From Rickettsiales bacterium (GTDB lineage: Bacteria; Pseudomonadota; Alphaproteobacteria; Rs-D84): DNA of 43,958 nt. Each line of letters opens with the position of its first letter. The stretch's first letter is position 1. This document shows positions 2-11,793 of the stretch, one piece after another. Made by a program: the position numbers and the translations under genes. Below the pieces are notes generated by a model. It was not told where the DNA came from. It worked only from the letters and a program-made list of their open reading frames with translations, and made no database searches. The stretch is from positions 1 through 43,958 of the forward strand of contig JAITQO010000015.1 of assembly GCA_031288835.1 (NCBI GenBank), given 5' to 3'.

Positions 2-1081
2 CAGGCCGGTATCCCGATTTCAGAGGTCAAAAACACAGGCTCCTCAAATACGGTCTGGAAATTCGTCGTCGCAAAGCTCGCCGCTATGCGCGTCGATGCC
101 TGCACTAATGCTATTAAAGCCGCCCTGGAGGCCGATACGGCGTGCGGGAAAGGATATATCGGGTGTCTGTCCATGGACGCCGAGTTCTTCCGCGACATTA
201 TCCCGCCGGAAAAGTTGGTTTCCTGCATGAAAAATGGCGAAACCATCACGGCCAACGATTGGACAGAAACAGGAAAAATCGGCAATATGGTCATGGGCAT
301 CATGCTCAATGCTGATAATGAAGCGTTGAATGTTTGCACCGTTGCCGCTGCGAAGCAAGTCATGACCCTTTGCAGCGTTGATGGCGCAGGATATTCGGAC
401 GAAGACTTGGAGGCGGCAAGTCCCGGAATGCTGGCGGATTGCGACGCGGCGTTCGCCGGTATCAATAGTTTGAACGGATTCGGAGCGGGCGACGCCGCCA
501 AAGTTCACGAGCTGGTCGGACAGAAAACCAAATTGGTCGGCCTGATTGATTTTACCAACTTCAACCTGACAAAGCCCGGCGAATCCGTAGAAGCCGACAG
601 CGATGAATATTATCCGCATTTCACCTTTACTGAAATGAGCGGCGCGTCGGCGAAGATATCGAACGACGCGGCGAAGGGCATTATCAGAACGATTCGTTCA
701 AGAATTGACAACATGCTTGAAGGAAAAGATGGGCAAACGCTGAAGTTCTGCACGCAGGGACGCGACCTGTCGCAAATCATGGCGCGCGATAAGCGCGGAA
801 GGGTGGCCGGCAATGCGGCGCAGCGCGAGCAGGCGAAAACCAACAAGTCTGAGGCCAGATTCCCGAACCTTCTTGACACGGTGGTCGAAAACATCCTGCA
901 TTCCGGATTGAGAAAGGCGAAAAGCCTGTATAACGTGCAATTAAACGCGGAAGCGGAAAAGTTTCAAGTACAACTGCGCGAAATGATGATAACGGCGCCG
1001 GGCAAGGGATATATCGACGACAGTTTGGGGATTTGCTGGCACAAAAACAAAGCCACCATGAGTCTTACCAAGACCGAATAA
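2..1081 (+). CDS. Unknown protein, 5' end outside window
   Basis: The reading frame is open from the first bases of the window and ends at TAA 1079-1081, so only the C-terminal part (about 359 residues) is seen. An ATG at 86 lies inside the frame, but the codons before it read equally well, so it is probably not the start. The visible part has scattered cysteines in its first half and a basic stretch near residues 230-265, with no motif I recognise. The tail (about 300-345) looks helical and charged. It is followed 20 bases later by a secreted Cys-rich protein, which may share its transcript. Function unknown; confidence is only that this is a real coding region. Confidence 0.7.
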   Translation, partial: QAGIPISEVKNTGSSNTVWKFVVAKLAAMRVDACTNAIKAALEADTACGKGYIGCLSMDAEFFRDIIPPEKLVSCMKNGETITANDWTETGKIGNMVMGIMLNADNEALNVCTVAAAKQVMTLCSVDGAGYSDEDLEAASPGMLADCDAAFAGINSLNGFGAGDAAKVHELVGQKTKLVGLIDFTNFNLTKPGESVEADSDEYYPHFTFTEMSGASAKISNDAAKGIIRTIRSRIDNMLEGKDGQTLKFCTQGRDLSQIMARDKRGRVAGNAAQREQAKTNKSEARFPNLLDTVVENILHSGLRKAKSLYNVQLNAEAEKFQVQLREMMITAPGKGYIDDSLGICWHKNKATMSLTKTE

Positions 1082-3842: not shown

Positions 3843-5045
3843 GTGAAAAATCAAAGAAAGATTCTTTTTTTTACCGTAATTGCCGCGGTTTTATCGGTCG
3901 CCGCGACAATCGCCTTCACGCCGACGGCGATAAATGCTTTATCCGAGCAGAAAATTGCCGTCAAAAACGGAGACACTCTGTCCAGCATTCTAACGCCGCA
4001 TTCATTGTCGGGATACGATATTCTAGAAATTGCAAAATTGCTCAAAAAAGAGGCGAAAGTTAGGTCATTAAAGGCCGATTATGACGTTATCAAAATATCT
4101 CGTCCGGCGGAAAACGAGCCCGTCGGCAAAATTACAATCCAATCGGGGCCATGGCGTCACATTGAGTTCAAAAAAACGGACACCGGATGGTCATGCAACC
4201 CAATCGATATTGAAAAAGACATTCAGATTGTTCTGAAAGAGGGAGAAATCCGATACGGAGATTCTTTTTATTCGTCCGGAATCCAGGCTGGCATTCCGGA
4301 ATCCATACTTGCGGACGCATATGACCTGCTGGCGTTCGAAATGGACTTTGAGCGCGATATGCGCGCCGGGCAGCAGTTTTCTATTCTATACGAGGAAAAC
4401 TTCGCAGAGGGGCAATTCGTCGGAACCGGACGGGTGATGGCCGTGATTTTCGCCGCCGGGCGCCGCCGCGGAGTCATAAAAATATACCGTTATGGCCGCG
4501 GATATTATGACGAGCACGGCGGCGGAGCAATCAAATCTTTAAAGCGAACGCCCATAAACAACGCGCGCGTGACGTCGTCGTTTTCCGGAAACAGAAGGCA
4601 TCCTGTTTTGGGATTCACGCGGGCGCACCGCGGCGTCGACTTTCGCGCGGCCACCGGCACGCCGATTCCATCGGCCGGAAACGGACGCGTCGTTTCCCGC
4701 GGAACAAACAACGGCTATGGAAACCATATCCGCATCCGCCATAACGCCACATACGAAACGATGTATGCGCACATGAGCAGATTCCAGACGGGGATCGGCG
4801 TCGGAACGCAAGTCCGCCAGGGACAGATTGTCGGATATGTCGGAAACACGGGCATCTCGACAGGCCCTCATCTTCACTATGAAATAATAAAACATGGGCA
4901 GCGCGTGAATCCTATGACAGTGAAACTGCCTGCGATAAATAATCTGGCCAACAAGGATAAAGCCGATTTTCTGGAACTGCGCGAACATCTGGACAAGGCG
5001 ATGGAACTGATGAGACTGCACCCGACGCTGGTTGTTTACGAATGA
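3843..5045 (+). CDS. M23-family zinc metallopeptidase, cell-wall endopeptidase
   Basis: 400 residues with a GTG start. An N-terminal membrane anchor or signal segment (about 7-30) is followed by a linker domain and a C-terminal LytM/M23 domain. Zinc ligands are visible: H262 and D266 in HRGVDF, H310 in MYAH, and HLH 343-345 in GPHLHYE. All ligands are present, so an active peptidoglycan endopeptidase of the MepM type is likely, rather than a degenerate EnvC/NlpD-type activator. Residues 35-60 (KIAVKNGDTLSSIL) resemble a LysM-like or OapA-type wall-binding segment. No Shine-Dalgarno sequence is visible, in keeping with the promoter abutting the start. Confidence 0.9.
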   Translation: MKNQRKILFFTVIAAVLSVAATIAFTPTAINALSEQKIAVKNGDTLSSILTPHSLSGYDILEIAKLLKKEAKVRSLKADYDVIKISRPAENEPVGKITIQSGPWRHIEFKKTDTGWSCNPIDIEKDIQIVLKEGEIRYGDSFYSSGIQAGIPESILADAYDLLAFEMDFERDMRAGQQFSILYEENFAEGQFVGTGRVMAVIFAAGRRRGVIKIYRYGRGYYDEHGGGAIKSLKRTPINNARVTSSFSGNRRHPVLGFTRAHRGVDFRAATGTPIPSAGNGRVVSRGTNNGYGNHIRIRHNATYETMYAHMSRFQTGIGVGTQVRQGQIVGYVGNTGISTGPHLHYEIIKHGQRVNPMTVKLPAINNLANKDKADFLELREHLDKAMELMRLHPTLVVYE

Positions 5046-5081
5046 TAAGTATATGAATATGATTCCGTTGGAAATATAAAC

Positions 5082-5112
5082 AAAAAAAGGGGATGACCTG
5101 CGTCAGAGCCCC
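5082..5112 (-). terminator. Intrinsic terminator of the tracrRNA
   Basis: Read on the minus strand: GGGG (5112-5109), a bulge, TGAC (5105-5102), tetraloop GCAG, GTCA (5097-5094), CCCC (5092-5089), then seven T residues (5088-5082). This defines the 3' end of the tracrRNA. Confidence 0.85.
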
Positions 5113-5135
5113 ACACTATATTAGTTTATTATAGT

Positions 5136-5166
5136 TTGCTTTCCAAATCAGGCCAACTAATATAAT
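5136..5166 (+). promoter_or_regulatory. Candidate cas9 promoter inside the anti-repeat
   Basis: On the plus strand the anti-repeat carries TTGCTT (5136-5141) and, 19 bases later, TATAAT (5161-5166). These are the same two boxes found in every CRISPR repeat, where spacing is 16 bases. Transcription would begin near 5173 and give a leader of about 46 bases to the cas9 ATG at 5219. The long spacing makes it weaker than consensus. Confidence 0.5.
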
Positions 5167-5173
5167 ATTTGCA

Positions 5174-5201
5174 ATTATAAATTAAAGTACTAGAATGTCA
5201 A
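5174..5201 (-). promoter_or_regulatory. Consensus sigma70 promoter of the tracrRNA
   Basis: On the minus strand TTGACA (5201-5196), 16 bases, TATAAT (5179-5174). Both hexamers are perfect. Predicted +1 is near 5167. The promoter lies between the predicted cas9 transcription start and the cas9 ATG, so the two promoters overlap. Confidence 0.8.
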
Positions 5202-5218
5202 GCCAAAAAGGATTCGTA

Positions 5219-8167
5219 ATGCGGATATTTGGATTCGACCTTGGAATCGCCAGCATCGGCTGGGCTGTCGTGGATATAAATAAAGAAAATAAAGATTCGA
5301 AATCCGGGCCCGCATCAAATGGGAAAATTATCGCCAGCGGCGTCCGCATATTTGATATTGCCGAAAATCCGAAGGACGGAAAATCGCTTGCCGCGCCGCG
5401 CCGCCTGGCGCGCGGATTGCGCCGGATTCTGCGCCGCCGCGCAAGACGCATGACGGAAATCCGCGAATTGCTAAAAAAATACGGATTTCAGGCACAATCG
5501 CTGCCGCGGGCTGGCGACATCGACGTTTGGAAGCTTCGCGCTGTCGACGTATTCGAAAGAAAACTTGATGACACAGAGATTGCGCGCGTCCTGATTCATA
5601 TCGCGAAGCACCGGGGATATAAGTCCGCAAAGAAATCGGGAGAAGAATCCGATATCGAAAGCGGAAAGGTCCTGAATGCGATTGCCGAAAATAAAAATAT
5701 GCTCGGAAATCACAAAACTATGGCGCAGATGATTTTCCATACCAGAGACCGCAAACGCAACCGCGGAAAAATTACAAAAATAGTCGCAAACAAGAAAGGC
5801 ATAGAGAAAACCGTCGAAGAAAATTATTATGGAAGCTCCATTCCGAGGGATGAAATCATCCGCGAGGCAAAAATCGTCTTTGAAGCACAAGGTTTGAATT
5901 TCTACGACGAATATGCAGGCATCGCCTTTCGGCATAGATTGTTCAATGAGGGACCGGACCCAAAAAAGTTTGCGACGCCGGCAAAGACATTGGATGCAAT
6001 GATTGGAACATGCACCTTTGAACCTGACGAATCCCGCGCACCGAAAGAGGCGCCGACGGCAGAATTGTTCGTCGCGCTTACCAAAATCCACAACACCAAG
6101 ATTATAATTGACGGCAAGACAAGATTCTTTACAGAAGAAGAGCGTATGAAAACCTTGGGATTGCTGAAAGAACAAAAAGATGTAAAATATTCCTCATTGA
6201 ACAAAAAAATTTTCGATGGCAAGGCGGCTTTTCCCGATATTTACGGCAAAGACGAAAAAGAGACGAAATTCTTCTCAATGTCAGGATTTCATAAACTTAA
6301 AAACGCATTAAAAGATTTTCCAGATGCAATGGAAAATTTTGCACGGCTTGATAGAATTATGACGATTGTCGCAACTGAAAAAACCGATGACAAAATGGAA
6401 GCGGCGCTGTCAAAGGCCGATATTCCGGATGACTGGCGTGAAGCGATAAAAAAACTGACGTCGGACAGATTTAATAATTTATCACTGAAAGCATTGTATA
6501 AAATCGTCCCCGAGATGACTTCCGGAAAAAAATACAACGAAGCCTGCGAATCCGTTGGCTACGACTTCCGCAAGGGCGGAGATGAGTTGGTATCCGTGCG
6601 CGAAGACAGATTGCTAGACGTCATCACGGACGACAAAATGACAAACGTTCCCGCAGTAAACCGCACAATCGCCCAATTCCGCAAGGTTTATAACGCGATG
6701 GCCCGCGAATACGGCCAGCCGGACCAAACCAATTTGGAAATCGGCCGTGAATTAAAAAAATCGCACGACGAGCGCAAACAAATTGAAAAACAAATCAATG
6801 AAAATAATGCAAAGAATGAAGCGGCGAGGGAAAATCTGTCGCAGTTTGGAATCGAGCCGACAGGAACCAATTTATTGAAATACAAACTATATATGGAGCA
6901 AAACTGCAAATGCGTATATTCTGGAACACAAATGACTTTCGGCGAATTTGACAATTACGAAATCGACCATATATTGCCGTTTTCACGTTCGCTTGACGAT
7001 TCTTTCAACAACAAAGTTTTGGTGCTTCGCACAGAAAACCAAAGAAAAGGCAACAAGACCCCATGGGAATATATGCAGGATAATTGGACAGAGTTCGAGG
7101 AGCGCGTCCGAACTATACAAAATCCAAAAAAACGCGCGAATCTACTGAACAAGGAGTTCTCGGAAACAGAGAATGAAATGAAGTTCCGCGAACGCAACGC
7201 GAACGACAATGCATATATCTCGCGATTTGTCGGGCAATACTTGAAAGACGGCTCCGGATTGCCAAACGAGCGGATCTGCGTCCGCACCGGGTCGCTGACC
7301 GCCTATTTGCGACATCAGTGGGGATTGGAGAAAAATCGGAATAAATCGGACAGGCATCACGCACAGGATGCGATTGTGATTGCATGCGCGACGCAAGGCA
7401 TGGTGCAATACCTGTCAAATTGGTCGGCAATAATGGGAACGCGAGAGGCCATGACGACACTGAAAGAATACGACATGATGCGCAAAAGATTTGCCGAACC
7501 TTGGACGGGTTTCCGAAATGAAATTGCGGAGTCATTAAATAAAATCTTTGTGAGTCGTTCCCCTCGCAGGAAAGCAAGCGGCCAAATCCACTTGGAAACA
7601 ATTTATAACAAAAACGGGGCGACAAACAAAGAGCCGAAAAAAATCGCCATAAAATCCGGCATACCGATTCGCGGGGGACTTGCGGCAAACGGAGAAATGC
7701 TGCGCATAGACGTTTTTTCGAAGAAAAATAAAACCGGCAGGGACAAGTTTTATTTCATACCGATTTATTTATCGCAGATGGGACGTGAATTGCCCGTAAA
7801 GGTATGCACTGCGAATATTCTAGAATCAGAATGGCCGGAAATTGACGATTCAGCTGCATTCAGATTCTCGATTTATAAAAACGACTTGATTAGAACAAAA
7901 AAAGGCGACGCAGAATATTTTGGATATTATGACGGAGCAGATCGTTCAACGGCGGCGATTTCGATTGTCGCTCCAGACAGGCAATGGACGAAACGCGGAG
8001 TCGGAATCCAAAATCTTGACATATTTGAGAAATACCAGGTTGATATGCTAGGAAATTATGTCAAGGTCAATTCGGAGCAGAGGCAAAATTTAATAAAAGG
8101 AAAGAAAGGACAATCCAAAGGGAATAAAAATGGGATGGCGTGTCCTTCAACTGTCAAAACCGTGTAA
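5219..8167 (+). CDS. cas9: CRISPR-associated endonuclease Cas9, type II-C
   Basis: RNA-guided DNA endonuclease. With the ATG at 5219 (AAGGA six bases upstream) the protein is 982 residues, in the compact II-C size range. An upstream in-frame ATG at 5195 overlaps the tracrRNA promoter and has no ribosome site, so I reject it. Visible domains: RuvC-I with D7 (FGFDLGIASIGW), an Arg-rich bridge helix about 61-82, RuvC-II with E507 (NLEIGRE), HNH with H584 (EIDHILPFSRS), and RuvC-III with H714 and D717 (HHAQDA). All nuclease residues are present, so both cuts should occur. The C-terminal 200 residues would be the PAM-interacting region. It overlaps cas1 by 38 bases. No csn2 or cas4 is nearby, hence II-C. 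Confidence 0.97.
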   Translation: MRIFGFDLGIASIGWAVVDINKENKDSKSGPASNGKIIASGVRIFDIAENPKDGKSLAAPRRLARGLRRILRRRARRMTEIRELLKKYGFQAQSLPRAGDIDVWKLRAVDVFERKLDDTEIARVLIHIAKHRGYKSAKKSGEESDIESGKVLNAIAENKNMLGNHKTMAQMIFHTRDRKRNRGKITKIVANKKGIEKTVEENYYGSSIPRDEIIREAKIVFEAQGLNFYDEYAGIAFRHRLFNEGPDPKKFATPAKTLDAMIGTCTFEPDESRAPKEAPTAELFVALTKIHNTKIIIDGKTRFFTEEERMKTLGLLKEQKDVKYSSLNKKIFDGKAAFPDIYGKDEKETKFFSMSGFHKLKNALKDFPDAMENFARLDRIMTIVATEKTDDKMEAALSKADIPDDWREAIKKLTSDRFNNLSLKALYKIVPEMTSGKKYNEACESVGYDFRKGGDELVSVREDRLLDVITDDKMTNVPAVNRTIAQFRKVYNAMAREYGQPDQTNLEIGRELKKSHDERKQIEKQINENNAKNEAARENLSQFGIEPTGTNLLKYKLYMEQNCKCVYSGTQMTFGEFDNYEIDHILPFSRSLDDSFNNKVLVLRTENQRKGNKTPWEYMQDNWTEFEERVRTIQNPKKRANLLNKEFSETENEMKFRERNANDNAYISRFVGQYLKDGSGLPNERICVRTGSLTAYLRHQWGLEKNRNKSDRHHAQDAIVIACATQGMVQYLSNWSAIMGTREAMTTLKEYDMMRKRFAEPWTGFRNEIAESLNKIFVSRSPRRKASGQIHLETIYNKNGATNKEPKKIAIKSGIPIRGGLAANGEMLRIDVFSKKNKTGRDKFYFIPIYLSQMGRELPVKVCTANILESEWPEIDDSAAFRFSIYKNDLIRTKKGDAEYFGYYDGADRSTAAISIVAPDRQWTKRGVGIQNLDIFEKYQVDMLGNYVKVNSEQRQNLIKGKKGQSKGNKNGMACPSTVKTV

Positions 8168-9041
8168 ATTATATGTAAAAAACAAGCAACTTTTATATGA
8201 ATCGGATGAAACAACCGCAACGTTTCCAATAGAGGATTTATCCGTTGTTGTTCTGGAAACTGGTTTCGTACAACTAACAGGTAGCTTGTTGTCGGAATTT
8301 GCCGAAAATGGAGTGGTATTGTTTTCATGCGATTCATCGCATAACCCTTGCGGCGCATTTTTTCCATTTCACGGTCATTCGCGATATGCCGAAATCACCC
8401 ACGTTCAGATTGCATCAAGCGAACCGTTGAAAAAACGGTTGTGGCAATCTATTGTCATTCAAAAAATAAAAAATCAAGCTGATGTGCTCAGACTGCTTGG
8501 CAAGAGCGAAGCCGGCGTCGTATCTGCAATTGCAAACCGCGTTCAAAGCGGTGATTCTGAAAATACGGAGGCATATGCCGCCCAATTATACTGGAAATCA
8601 TTGTTTGACAATTTTACACGACGCGACGAGTCAAACATTTTGAACAAGGCTCTGAATTACGGATACGCCATTATGCGTGGCTGCATCGCGCGCAATGTTG
8701 TCGGCGCCGGGCTTATGCCATGCCTTGGCGTACACCATAACAATCAATTGAATCAATTTAACCTTGTTGACGATTTAATAGAACCATTTCGCCCATTTGT
8801 CGACTTTATGGTCGCCACCACGGATTTCTCAAACGAAGAAAATCTAACGCCGCAATTAAAGAACCAGATTATTTCGATTCTGCTTTGCAATTGCGACATA
8901 TCTGGCGAAAAAGTCTCTTTATTAAAATCATGCGAAATGACAGCGGAGAGCATGGCGAAATCACTTCGCGAAAAAGATTTTCATCTGCTGAAATTGCCTA
9001 TAATAAACGGATATCCGCAAATAATGCACGAGGTGGTTTGA
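8130..9041 (+). CDS. cas1: CRISPR-associated Cas1 integrase, type II
   Basis: 303 residues; with Cas2 it integrates new spacers at the array. The ATG at 8130 follows AAAGGGAA with normal spacing, inside the cas9 3' end, which suggests translational coupling. Likely metal ligands are E147 (ENTEAYAAQLYW), H203 (LGVHHNNQLNQFNL) and E218 (DLIEPFRPFVD), all in the expected family contexts. The N-terminal half is the beta-sandwich region. Base composition is more AT-rich than in flanking housekeeping genes, in keeping with an acquired module. Confidence 0.95.
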   Translation: MGWRVLQLSKPCKLYVKNKQLLYESDETTATFPIEDLSVVVLETGFVQLTGSLLSEFAENGVVLFSCDSSHNPCGAFFPFHGHSRYAEITHVQIASSEPLKKRLWQSIVIQKIKNQADVLRLLGKSEAGVVSAIANRVQSGDSENTEAYAAQLYWKSLFDNFTRRDESNILNKALNYGYAIMRGCIARNVVGAGLMPCLGVHHNNQLNQFNLVDDLIEPFRPFVDFMVATTDFSNEENLTPQLKNQIISILLCNCDISGEKVSLLKSCEMTAESMAKSLREKDFHLLKLPIINGYPQIMHEVV

Positions 9042-9439: not shown

Positions 9440-10201
9440 ATTATATCAAACCTGATTTGGAAAGCAAACTATAACCGAACATATTTATGCGTGTTTCCGA
9501 TGAGAATTATATCAAACCTGATTTGGAAAGCAAACTATAACCCTGCTGGCTACTGCGTTGAAGGAGAAGGAATTATATCAAACCTGATTTGGAAAGCAAA
9601 CTATAACTTTTTGATTGAGATATTTGTCGATATGGTCATTATATCAAACCTGATTTGGAAAGCAAACTATAACATTTCGTCAAAACGTGTTTGCTGAGGT
9701 ATCATTATATCAAACCTGATTTGGAAAGCAAACTATAACGGCTAACAGATTCAAAAGAAGAAAGAGAAAATTATATCAAACCTGATTTGGAAAGCAAACT
9801 ATAACTGGCTTATTGGTAGTCTTGCCGATTACTTCATTATATCAAACCTGATTTGGAAAGCAAACTATAACGCCTTTTGATTTTGCTATTTGCTGAATTC
9901 TATTATATCAAACCTGATTTGGAAAGCAAACTATAACTAAGAAAGTTCACTTGCCGTCAATACCTACATTATATCAAACCTGATTTGGAAAGCAAACTAT
10001 AACTTGCGTCGAATCATCCCTTTTAACGGACAAATTATATCAAACCTGATTTGGAAAGCAAACTATAACTCGAAAACGAAAATAAAATCTGGCGAACGAA
10101 TTATATCAAACCTGATTTGGAAAGCAAACTATAACATGAAATAACTTGCCCGCATTGTGGGTCGTATTATATCAAACCTGATTTGGAAAGCAAACTATAA
10201 C
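9440..10201 (-). CRISPR. Type II-C CRISPR array, 12 repeats and 11 spacers
   Basis: Twelve 36-base repeats start at 9440, 9506, 9572, 9638, 9704, 9770, 9836, 9902, 9968, 10034, 10100 and 10166. I see no differences between copies, and all 11 spacers are exactly 30 bases (period 66). crRNA polarity is read as minus strand for three reasons: that strand begins GTTATAG and ends in TGATATAAT, as in other type II repeats; the tracrRNA anti-repeat is on the minus strand; and an intrinsic terminator follows at 9404-9428. Each repeat holds TTGCTT, 16 bases, then TATAAT with an extended TG, so each could start its own crRNA about seven bases into the next spacer, as described for Neisseria II-C arrays. 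No spacer obviously matches this window. Confidence 0.97.
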
Positions 10202-10238: not shown

Positions 10239-10266
10239 TTGACAGTGGCTAAAAACGAATTATAAT
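10239..10266 (+). promoter_or_regulatory. Consensus promoter of the outer-membrane barrel gene
   Basis: TTGACA (10239-10244), 16 bases, TATAAT (10261-10266), both perfect hexamers, 14 bases before the ATG at 10281. It begins 37 bases after the last CRISPR repeat. Confidence 0.75.
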
Positions 10267-11158: not shown

Positions 11159-11757
11159 TCACATATAGTTATTAAATCAAGTAAAAAATCAAAAAAAATC
11201 TTCGCGCGCGTATATAGTATATATATATTATTATATATAATATATAATAATTATTATATCAGTAATAGTATCGTAATAAGATATTTGTACAGTAATTGAT
11301 ATTTATTATGTGGATATTTACAGTTTTTTGTAGTTATTACTCGCAGTAGATAGTTATTTGGCGTAGTTATTATTTCTAATACACGCGCGTTATATAAAAA
11401 TATATTCGACATTACGGTTATTTTGAGGGAAAGACCTCTTTTTTGAGATTTTTAAGTTTGTTGTGAAGAAAAATATTCTATCAATAATTGGTTTTGAGAA
11501 GAAATAAAATGTGATTAGACTTTTTATCCTTTGTTGAAAAATCGAGCAAGTTCCGGACAAGTTTTCGCAAAAGATTCGCAAAGATGTGTCAATGGGGTTG
11601 TAAAGCGTTTGTTTGCGTTTGCGTGCCTGTAAAGGAATAAGCGCGTAATAGCCTGCGCCTTATTGATTCCGCCGAGCAAAATAAAAAAAAGAAAAAACAA
11701 CCAGAATAAGAGAAAAACTATTTGATGTAAAAGTATGAATGATTAAATGGTATTATC
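11159..11757. other. AT-rich non-coding segment
   Basis: About 600 bases with no convincing gene. The first 230 bases contain long alternating A/T runs (11210-11260). TAGTTATT occurs four times (near 11166, 11331, 11350 and 11364). A weak intrinsic terminator, GAGG/CCTC plus six T, lies at 11425-11444, and a longer imperfect hairpin at about 11636-11664. The two halves differ in composition; the second half has GC-richer patches (about 11585-11690) that may be gene remnants. Confidence 0.5.
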
Positions 11758-11793
11758 ATTATATCAAACCTGATTTGGAAAGCAAACTATAAC
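11758..11793 (-). repeat. Solitary CRISPR repeat
   Basis: A 36-base sequence identical to the array repeats, 1,556 bases beyond the last array repeat, with no second copy within spacer distance on either side. Like the others it carries TTGCTT-16-TATAAT on the minus strand. A further TATAAT lies upstream of it on the minus strand at about 11801-11806. The 200 bases between this repeat and tRNA-Leu hold no gene I can support. Confidence 0.9.

What the first reader, a model, noticed from the sequence alone, without database searches (positions are those of the whole stretch)
5117..5221. Interlocked cas9 and tracrRNA promoters, with the anti-repeat doubling as cas9 promoter
The tracrRNA runs leftward from a perfect TTGACA-16-TATAAT promoter (5201-5174). 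The same 60 bases read rightward contain TTGCTT and TATAAT inside and next to the anti-repeat, the very boxes every repeat uses as its own promoter. The predicted starts (about 5167 and 5173) lie within ten bases of each other, so RNA polymerase could occupy only one at a time. This suggests that the anti-repeat is a captured repeat whose built-in promoter was kept to drive cas9. It would give a mutually exclusive switch between effector and guide RNA, and a site where Cas9-tracrRNA could feed back on its own expression.
Basis: partly seen in the sequence, partly recalled or inferred. Interest (0 to 1): 0.78.

Follow-up and report, generated by a model that had tools for sequence, protein, structure and literature searches.

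The report
Self-closing tracrRNA beside overlapping cas9 promoter
The stretch read as a hidden cas9 promoter inside a CRISPR helper RNA gene is better explained as one strand of an evolutionarily conserved hairpin that folds this helper RNA shut, while the likely cas9 promoter lies just downstream and shares its DNA with the helper RNA's own promoter.

Summary
The sequence observations hold. There is a perfect TTGACA-16-TATAAT tracrRNA promoter (5201-5174, -), and a + strand TATAAT (5161-5166) beside the anti-repeat. Reading that TATAAT as the cas9 promoter fails. It lacks the TG-n extension that the repeats carry, and its spacing to TTGCTT is 19, not 16. It lies inside the 5' arm (5155-5168) of a stem that pairs with 5113-5126 and closes the anti-repeat in a loop. 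That stem covaries across a clade of II-C loci (0 of 20,000 permutations; covariation score 0.358 against 0.170 shuffled), starts at the predicted tracrRNA 5' end, is more stable in the tracrRNA sense, and is absent by the same test from 24 other type II loci. Predicted crRNA pairing opens it and frees a nexus-like hairpin. A better cas9 promoter is TTGCAA-16-TAGAAT (5169-5196, +). It occupies the same DNA as the tracrRNA promoter, so mutual exclusion survives in altered form (7 representative loci, combined P about 3e-4), though a sister group lacks it. No Cas9-tracrRNA feedback site was found. All functions are inferred; there are no RNA data.

The parts
5082..5167 (-). tracrRNA, about 86 nt (predicted start 5167, T tract 5082-5088)
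   Evidence: promoter; anti-repeat; fold
5196..5201 (-). tracrRNA -35 box TTGACA
   Evidence: TTGAC kept in nearly all relatives
5174..5179 (-). tracrRNA -10 box TATAAT
5155..5168 (-). 5' arm of the fold-back stem, AUAUUAUAUUAGUU; contains the complement of the + strand TATAAT
   Evidence: 14 pairs, shuffle P 0.003; covariation; MFE
   Evidence: absent in 28 of 28 relatives
5129..5152 (-). anti-repeat, 24 nt perfect complement of the repeat 5' part
   Evidence: I3-I14
5113..5126 (-). 3' arm of the fold-back stem, AACUAAUAUAGUGU
5115..5125 (-). alternative nexus-like hairpin ACUA-AUA-UAGU, predicted once crRNA is bound
   Evidence: cofold
5082..5112 (-). GGGG...CCCC terminator-like hairpin (5089-5112) with T7 tract (5082-5088)
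   Evidence: sequence; fold (the simple scan did not list it)
5169..5174 (+). candidate cas9 -35 box TTGCAA (spacer 16; TTTGCA with 17 one base earlier)
5191..5196 (+). candidate cas9 -10 box TAGAAT, sharing base 5196 with the tracrRNA -35; start near 5203
5205..5212 (+). ribosome-binding site AAAAAGGA
   Evidence: sequence; same layout in group A relatives
5219..8167 (+). cas9
   Evidence: TIGR01865 E 3e-196
8130..9041 (+). cas1, type II family
   Evidence: TIGR03639
9042..9371 (+). cas2
   Evidence: TIGR01573
9440..10201 (-). CRISPR array, 12 repeats, each ending in extended -10 TGATATAAT

Best explanation
The region is a II-C tracrRNA gene and its divergent neighbour cas9. The tracrRNA starts near 5167. 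Its first 14 nucleotides pair with 14 nucleotides just past the anti-repeat, so the free RNA is closed: the anti-repeat sits in a loop and the nexus segment is masked. Pairing with a crRNA repeat is far more favourable, so it should displace the 5' arm, open the molecule and let the freed 3' arm fold into a short nexus-like hairpin. I infer that this makes the tracrRNA competent for Cas9 only after it has met a crRNA, and that it may also protect the 5' end; the function is not shown. The + strand TATAAT is a by-product of this arm, not a cas9 promoter. cas9 is most likely transcribed from TTGCAA-16-TAGAAT (5169-5196), which shares its DNA with the tracrRNA promoter in the opposite direction, so polymerase can use only one at a time. 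Shown by sequence comparison: the stem and its covariation, and the loss of TATAAT in relatives. Inferred: start sites, cas9 promoter use, the gating role (about 0.35 on its own).
For: Arm-to-arm pairing energy of 9 group representatives beats all 20,000 re-pairings (-86.2 against mean -48.7). On a MAFFT alignment not fitted to structure (A2, 22 rows): 88.8% of cells paired, covariation score 0.358 against 0.170 shuffled (0/500) and at most 0.147 when slid. tracrRNA sense more stable than mRNA sense in 27 of 29 loci, through G-U pairs. Window tracrRNA folds this way, z -2.6. Stem outer end lies within -1 to +5 nt of the predicted start in 20 loci. Three further loci found later have it (L162 14 pairs, P 0.002; L155 P 0.020; L154 P 0.058). 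Same test on 24 loci outside the clade: 1 below P 0.05. Cofold opens the stem and forms the nexus-like hairpin (-57.8 against -26.6 for separate folds in the window). + TATAAT in 0 of 28 relatives. Interlocked + promoter: best + promoter in the interval in the window and groups A, B and most of D; Fisher P 3e-4 over 7 representatives.
Against: RNAalifold on the same alignment did not predict the stem, probably because of the long loop and gapped linkers. Per-locus support is weak in most of group C, L038, L058 and L060. The cas9 promoter is not interlocked in group C, L044, L058, L060 or L067, so mutual exclusion is not a fixed feature. Promoter scores use E. coli consensus frequencies recalled from memory. 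No transcript or binding data exist here. Permutations treat groups as independent.
Confidence: 0.6

Rival explanations
1. One reading: the anti-repeat keeps the repeat's promoter (TTGCTT, TATAAT 5161-5166) and drives cas9 from about 5173, competing with the tracrRNA promoter.
For: Exact TATAAT at 5161-5166; 6.9-bit promoter score there against 8.0 for the alternative, so it is not silent by score alone.
Against: Missing in 28 of 28 relatives; TG-n extension lost in all anti-repeats; spacing 19 to TTGCTT; the bases are explained by the stem arm; group C has its own separate cas9 promoter candidates downstream.
Confidence: 0.08
2. cas9 is transcribed mainly by read-through from the upstream M23 peptidase gene (3843-5045, same strand) and the local promoters on the + strand are decoys.
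For: The upstream gene is co-oriented, and no + strand terminator was found between it and cas9; weak + promoter-like sites at 4914-5122.
Against: The sequence upstream of the tracrRNA is unrelated among relatives while the overlapping promoter and the cas9 ribosome-binding site stay.
Confidence: 0.2
3. The two arms are a DNA inverted repeat bound by a repressor that controls both promoters, not an RNA stem.
For: The arms flank the anti-repeat and lie next to both promoters; covariation alone does not say DNA or RNA.
Against: Pairing is better in the tracrRNA sense in 27 of 29 loci through G-U pairs; the stem begins at the predicted RNA 5' end; half-site sequences differ completely between groups and linkers vary in length.
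Confidence: 0.1
4. The stem is real but its job is 5'-end protection or folding of the free tracrRNA (stability), not gating of Cas9 loading.
For: The stem is 5'-terminal, at or within a few bases of the predicted start; such stems are known to slow 5'-dependent decay (established knowledge, not tested here).
Against: The 3' arm is the segment that would form the nexus hairpin, rather than any other downstream sequence; stability alone would not need this partner.
Confidence: 0.35

Closest known systems
Type II-C CRISPR-Cas9 with promoters inside the repeats (Campylobacter jejuni, PMC3656092; Neisseria meningitidis)
   Same: cas9-cas1-cas2 only; each repeat ends in an extended -10 box; tracrRNA with anti-repeat
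   Different: Here the anti-repeat has lost that extended -10 and the tracrRNA has a 5' fold-back stem; the Rodentibacter locus tested (L090, Neisseria-like repeat) has no such stem
tracr-L / natural single-guide autorepression in Streptococcus pyogenes (PMC11417352)
   Different: No long form with a repeat-like stretch and no guide match to the cas9 promoter found here; here the fold-back pairs with the nexus side, not with the anti-repeat
Bacterial bidirectional promoters (PMC12825309)
   Same: Opposed promoters in one stretch, divergent RNAs, polymerase can bind only one way at a time
   Different: Those share a -10 element with starts 10, 18 or 23 bp apart; here each -10 lies at the other's -35 and predicted starts are 36 bp apart
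CRISPRCas_38, a covarying tracrRNA model from Bacteroidetes II-C (PMC9067536)
   Same: tracrRNA just upstream of cas9 with covariation
   Different: Found almost only in Bacteroidetes; the Bacteroidetes-type loci tested here lack the 5' fold-back stem, apart from L111 at P 0.017. Its drawn structure could not be read

Membership tests
Type II-C CRISPR-Cas | cas9, cas1, cas2 and no fourth cas gene (csn2 or cas4) | tested here: met
   cas9, cas1_NMENI type, cas2, then the array; no csn2 or cas4 among the neighbouring ORFs scanned
Type II-C CRISPR-Cas | tracrRNA with anti-repeat complementary to the repeat | tested here: met
   24 of 24 complementary to the repeat 5' part
[quoted passage not shown]
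   TGATATAAT in 13 of 13 repeat copies; activity not testable
   TG-n missing in the window and all relatives; TATAAT in the window only
tracr-L type natural guide | longer tracrRNA with repeat-like stretch upstream of the anti-repeat and guide match to the cas promoter | tested here: not met
   best upstream stretch 15 of 24, 500 bases away
Bidirectional promoter (shared -10) | overlapping -10 elements, starts about 10, 18 or 23 bp apart | tested here: not met
   -10 boxes at 5174-5179 (-) and 5191-5196 (+); starts about 36 bp apart
Mutually exclusive overlapping promoters | both promoters active and competing for polymerase | not testable with these tools
   no expression data; overlap itself shown

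The most novel reading that the evidence does not exclude
tracrRNAs of this II-C clade are two-state RNA switches: closed when free, with the nexus masked, and opened only by crRNA pairing, so Cas9 is loaded only with complete guides. Other II-C lineages (Clostridia) may reach the same closed state with a different arm, the anti-repeat itself.
Probability: 0.3. Interest if true: 0.75.

Novelty: new variant of a known kind. Interest (0 to 1): 0.48.

Why it matters
If right, tracrRNA is not merely a passive scaffold: it carries a conserved closing stem that crRNA must open, which would give a simple way to keep Cas9 from loading incomplete guides. It also warns that promoter-like boxes in anti-repeats can be by-products of RNA structure, and it bears on guide RNA design for Cas9s of this clade, where the native tracrRNA 5' end should be left out or kept on purpose.

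Tried and rejected
Anti-repeat as cas9 promoter: rejected on relatives, TG-n loss and spacing. Self-targeting spacers: best matches to the window 17-21 of 30, similar for all spacers, treated as chance. tracr-L-like natural guide: not found. Second tracrRNA or further repeats elsewhere in the genome: only the locus itself and one lone repeat. RNAalifold on the alignment: no stem predicted, reported as negative. Rfam scan: only a tRNA. First genome scan with the single Cas9 protein found nothing; the alignment did. The viral contig scan found no such Cas9; the repeat-pattern scan there was not followed. Literature searches found no description of a self-closing Cas9 tracrRNA, but only open-licence papers are held.

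Full report
What is there. The window (contig G000:C11 of a 0.8 Mb alphaproteobacterial genome; its closest named relatives are metagenome-assembled genomes labelled Rickettsiales or Alphaproteobacteria) holds a II-C CRISPR locus. It consists of a leftward tracrRNA, rightward cas9 (5219-8167), cas1, cas2 and a leftward array of 12 repeats at 9440-10201. The likely cas9 start is ATG 5219 with AAAAAGGA in front; the longer ORF from 5195 is not needed.

The observation. The tracrRNA promoter TTGACA-16-TATAAT (5201-5174) is perfect and rare. The + strand TATAAT at 5161-5166 exists. But the box pair is not that of the repeats. In the repeat TTGCTT to TATAAT is 16 bases, beside the anti-repeat 19. 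The repeats carry an extended -10, TGATATAAT, in 13 of 13 copies, which is the kind of element mapped in C. jejuni repeats (PMC3656092). The anti-repeat has CTAATATAAT and lacks the TG.

I collected Cas9 relatives from whole genomes and from named genome contigs, oriented them, and located the anti-repeat upstream of cas9 in 28 relatives. None has TATAAT in the 22 bases past the anti-repeat on the + strand, and none keeps the TG-n extension, while the repeats of the arrays keep it.

What the TATAAT is. The bases after the anti-repeat are complementary to those before it. In the window 5155-5168 pairs with 5113-5126, 14 pairs with two G-U, and TATAAT lies inside the first arm. In relatives both arms have different sequences yet still pair: GUAUUUCU/AGAAAUAC in group A, AGAAAUUUUUGAUU/AAUCGAAAAUUUCU in L057, GAAAAUUCU/AGAAUUUUC in L068, AGAGUAAGUUU/AGAUUUAUUCU in L044. 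Re-pairing arms between 9 group representatives never reached the observed energy in 20,000 permutations. On an alignment made from sequence alone the stem scores 0.358 for covariation, against 0.170 in shuffles and at most 0.147 when slid. Three loci found later also have it. RNAalifold did not report it, and single-locus support is weak in most of group C, L058 and L060.

Why RNA, and which RNA. Pairing is more stable read as tracrRNA than as cas9 mRNA in 27 of 29 loci. The outer end of the stem lies within -1 to +5 bases of the tracrRNA start predicted from the -10 box in 20 loci. The window tracrRNA folds with this stem at -24.9 kcal/mol, z -2.6. The same arm test in 24 type II loci outside the clade (Bacteroidetes, Balneola, Lentisphaerae, Rodentibacter and others) gave one locus (L111, P 0.017) below 0.05, as chance would, so this is a feature of one clade.

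How it may work (inference). With the cognate repeat present, cofolding breaks the stem. The anti-repeat pairs with the repeat, and the freed 3' arm forms a short hairpin where the nexus would be, ACUA-AUA-UAGU in the window, with similar hairpins in L040, L070 and L068. The linkers are only 1-15 bases, probably too short for the full stem and a full repeat duplex to coexist (geometric inference). The simplest reading is a tracrRNA that stays closed until it meets crRNA. A plainer alternative is protection of the 5' end. In the window, the 5' arm can also pair well with the repeat's 3' tail, which is one more reason for the AT-rich motif.

The cas9 promoter. Its -10 shares one base with the tracrRNA -35, and its -35 shares one base with the tracrRNA -10. 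In groups A, B and most of D the best + promoter sits at the same place. Shuffling all bases except the tracrRNA boxes gives P 0.006 (window), 0.003 (L031), 0.015 (L040), 0.009 (L037), 0.025 (L057); seven representatives combined give about 3e-4, including non-supporting L044 and L058. Group C has promoter candidates far from the tracrRNA promoter. Opposed promoters that exclude each other are known in E. coli (PMC12825309), usually with a shared -10, which is not the case here.

Feedback. No repeat-like stretch upstream of the tracrRNA start, as would be needed for a tracr-L (PMC11417352), and no spacer with a convincing match to the window was found.

Limits. There is no expression or structure data. 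Promoter frequencies are E. coli values from memory. Related loci are not independent, which the group-level permutation reduces but does not remove. The literature check covers open-licence papers only.

Noticed in passing
11758-11793 (-): A lone perfect repeat copy 1.5 kb beyond the array, between an Adr/OMP-like gene and tRNA-Leu, with its TGATATAAT intact; it looks like a remnant of a split array.
   Followed up: partly
10239-10266 (+): The only other perfect TTGACA-16-TATAAT in the window, just past the array end and pointing to the OMP gene; its -10 is palindromic (ATTATAAT), so the - strand TATAAT 10259-10264 could also start transcription into the array.
   Followed up: no
L083, L084, L085, L086, L088, L093, L095, L099 (Clostridia II-C): tracrRNA on the cas9 strand; the segment past the anti-repeat folds back onto the anti-repeat itself, with compensatory changes such as GUAG/CUAC to GUGG/CCAC; only 4 of 9 loci pass P 0.01. 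The anti-repeat there keeps TGATATAAT, pointing away from cas9.
   Followed up: partly
L092, L103, L113, L045: Anti-repeat to nexus-side hairpins also appear in some other type II loci.
   Followed up: no
11205-11262: Very AT-rich stretch of TATATA and ATTATT runs between the OMP gene and the lone repeat.
   Followed up: no
5128-5166 (-): The window's tracrRNA 5' end can pair with the whole 36-nt repeat including its AUAUAAU tail, better than in nearly all relatives; possibly recent copying from a repeat.
   Followed up: partly
L038 and L040, tracrRNA promoter spacer: Runs of 8-9 G between the tracrRNA boxes, while the boxes on both strands stay intact; a possible slippage site tuning promoter spacing.
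   Followed up: no
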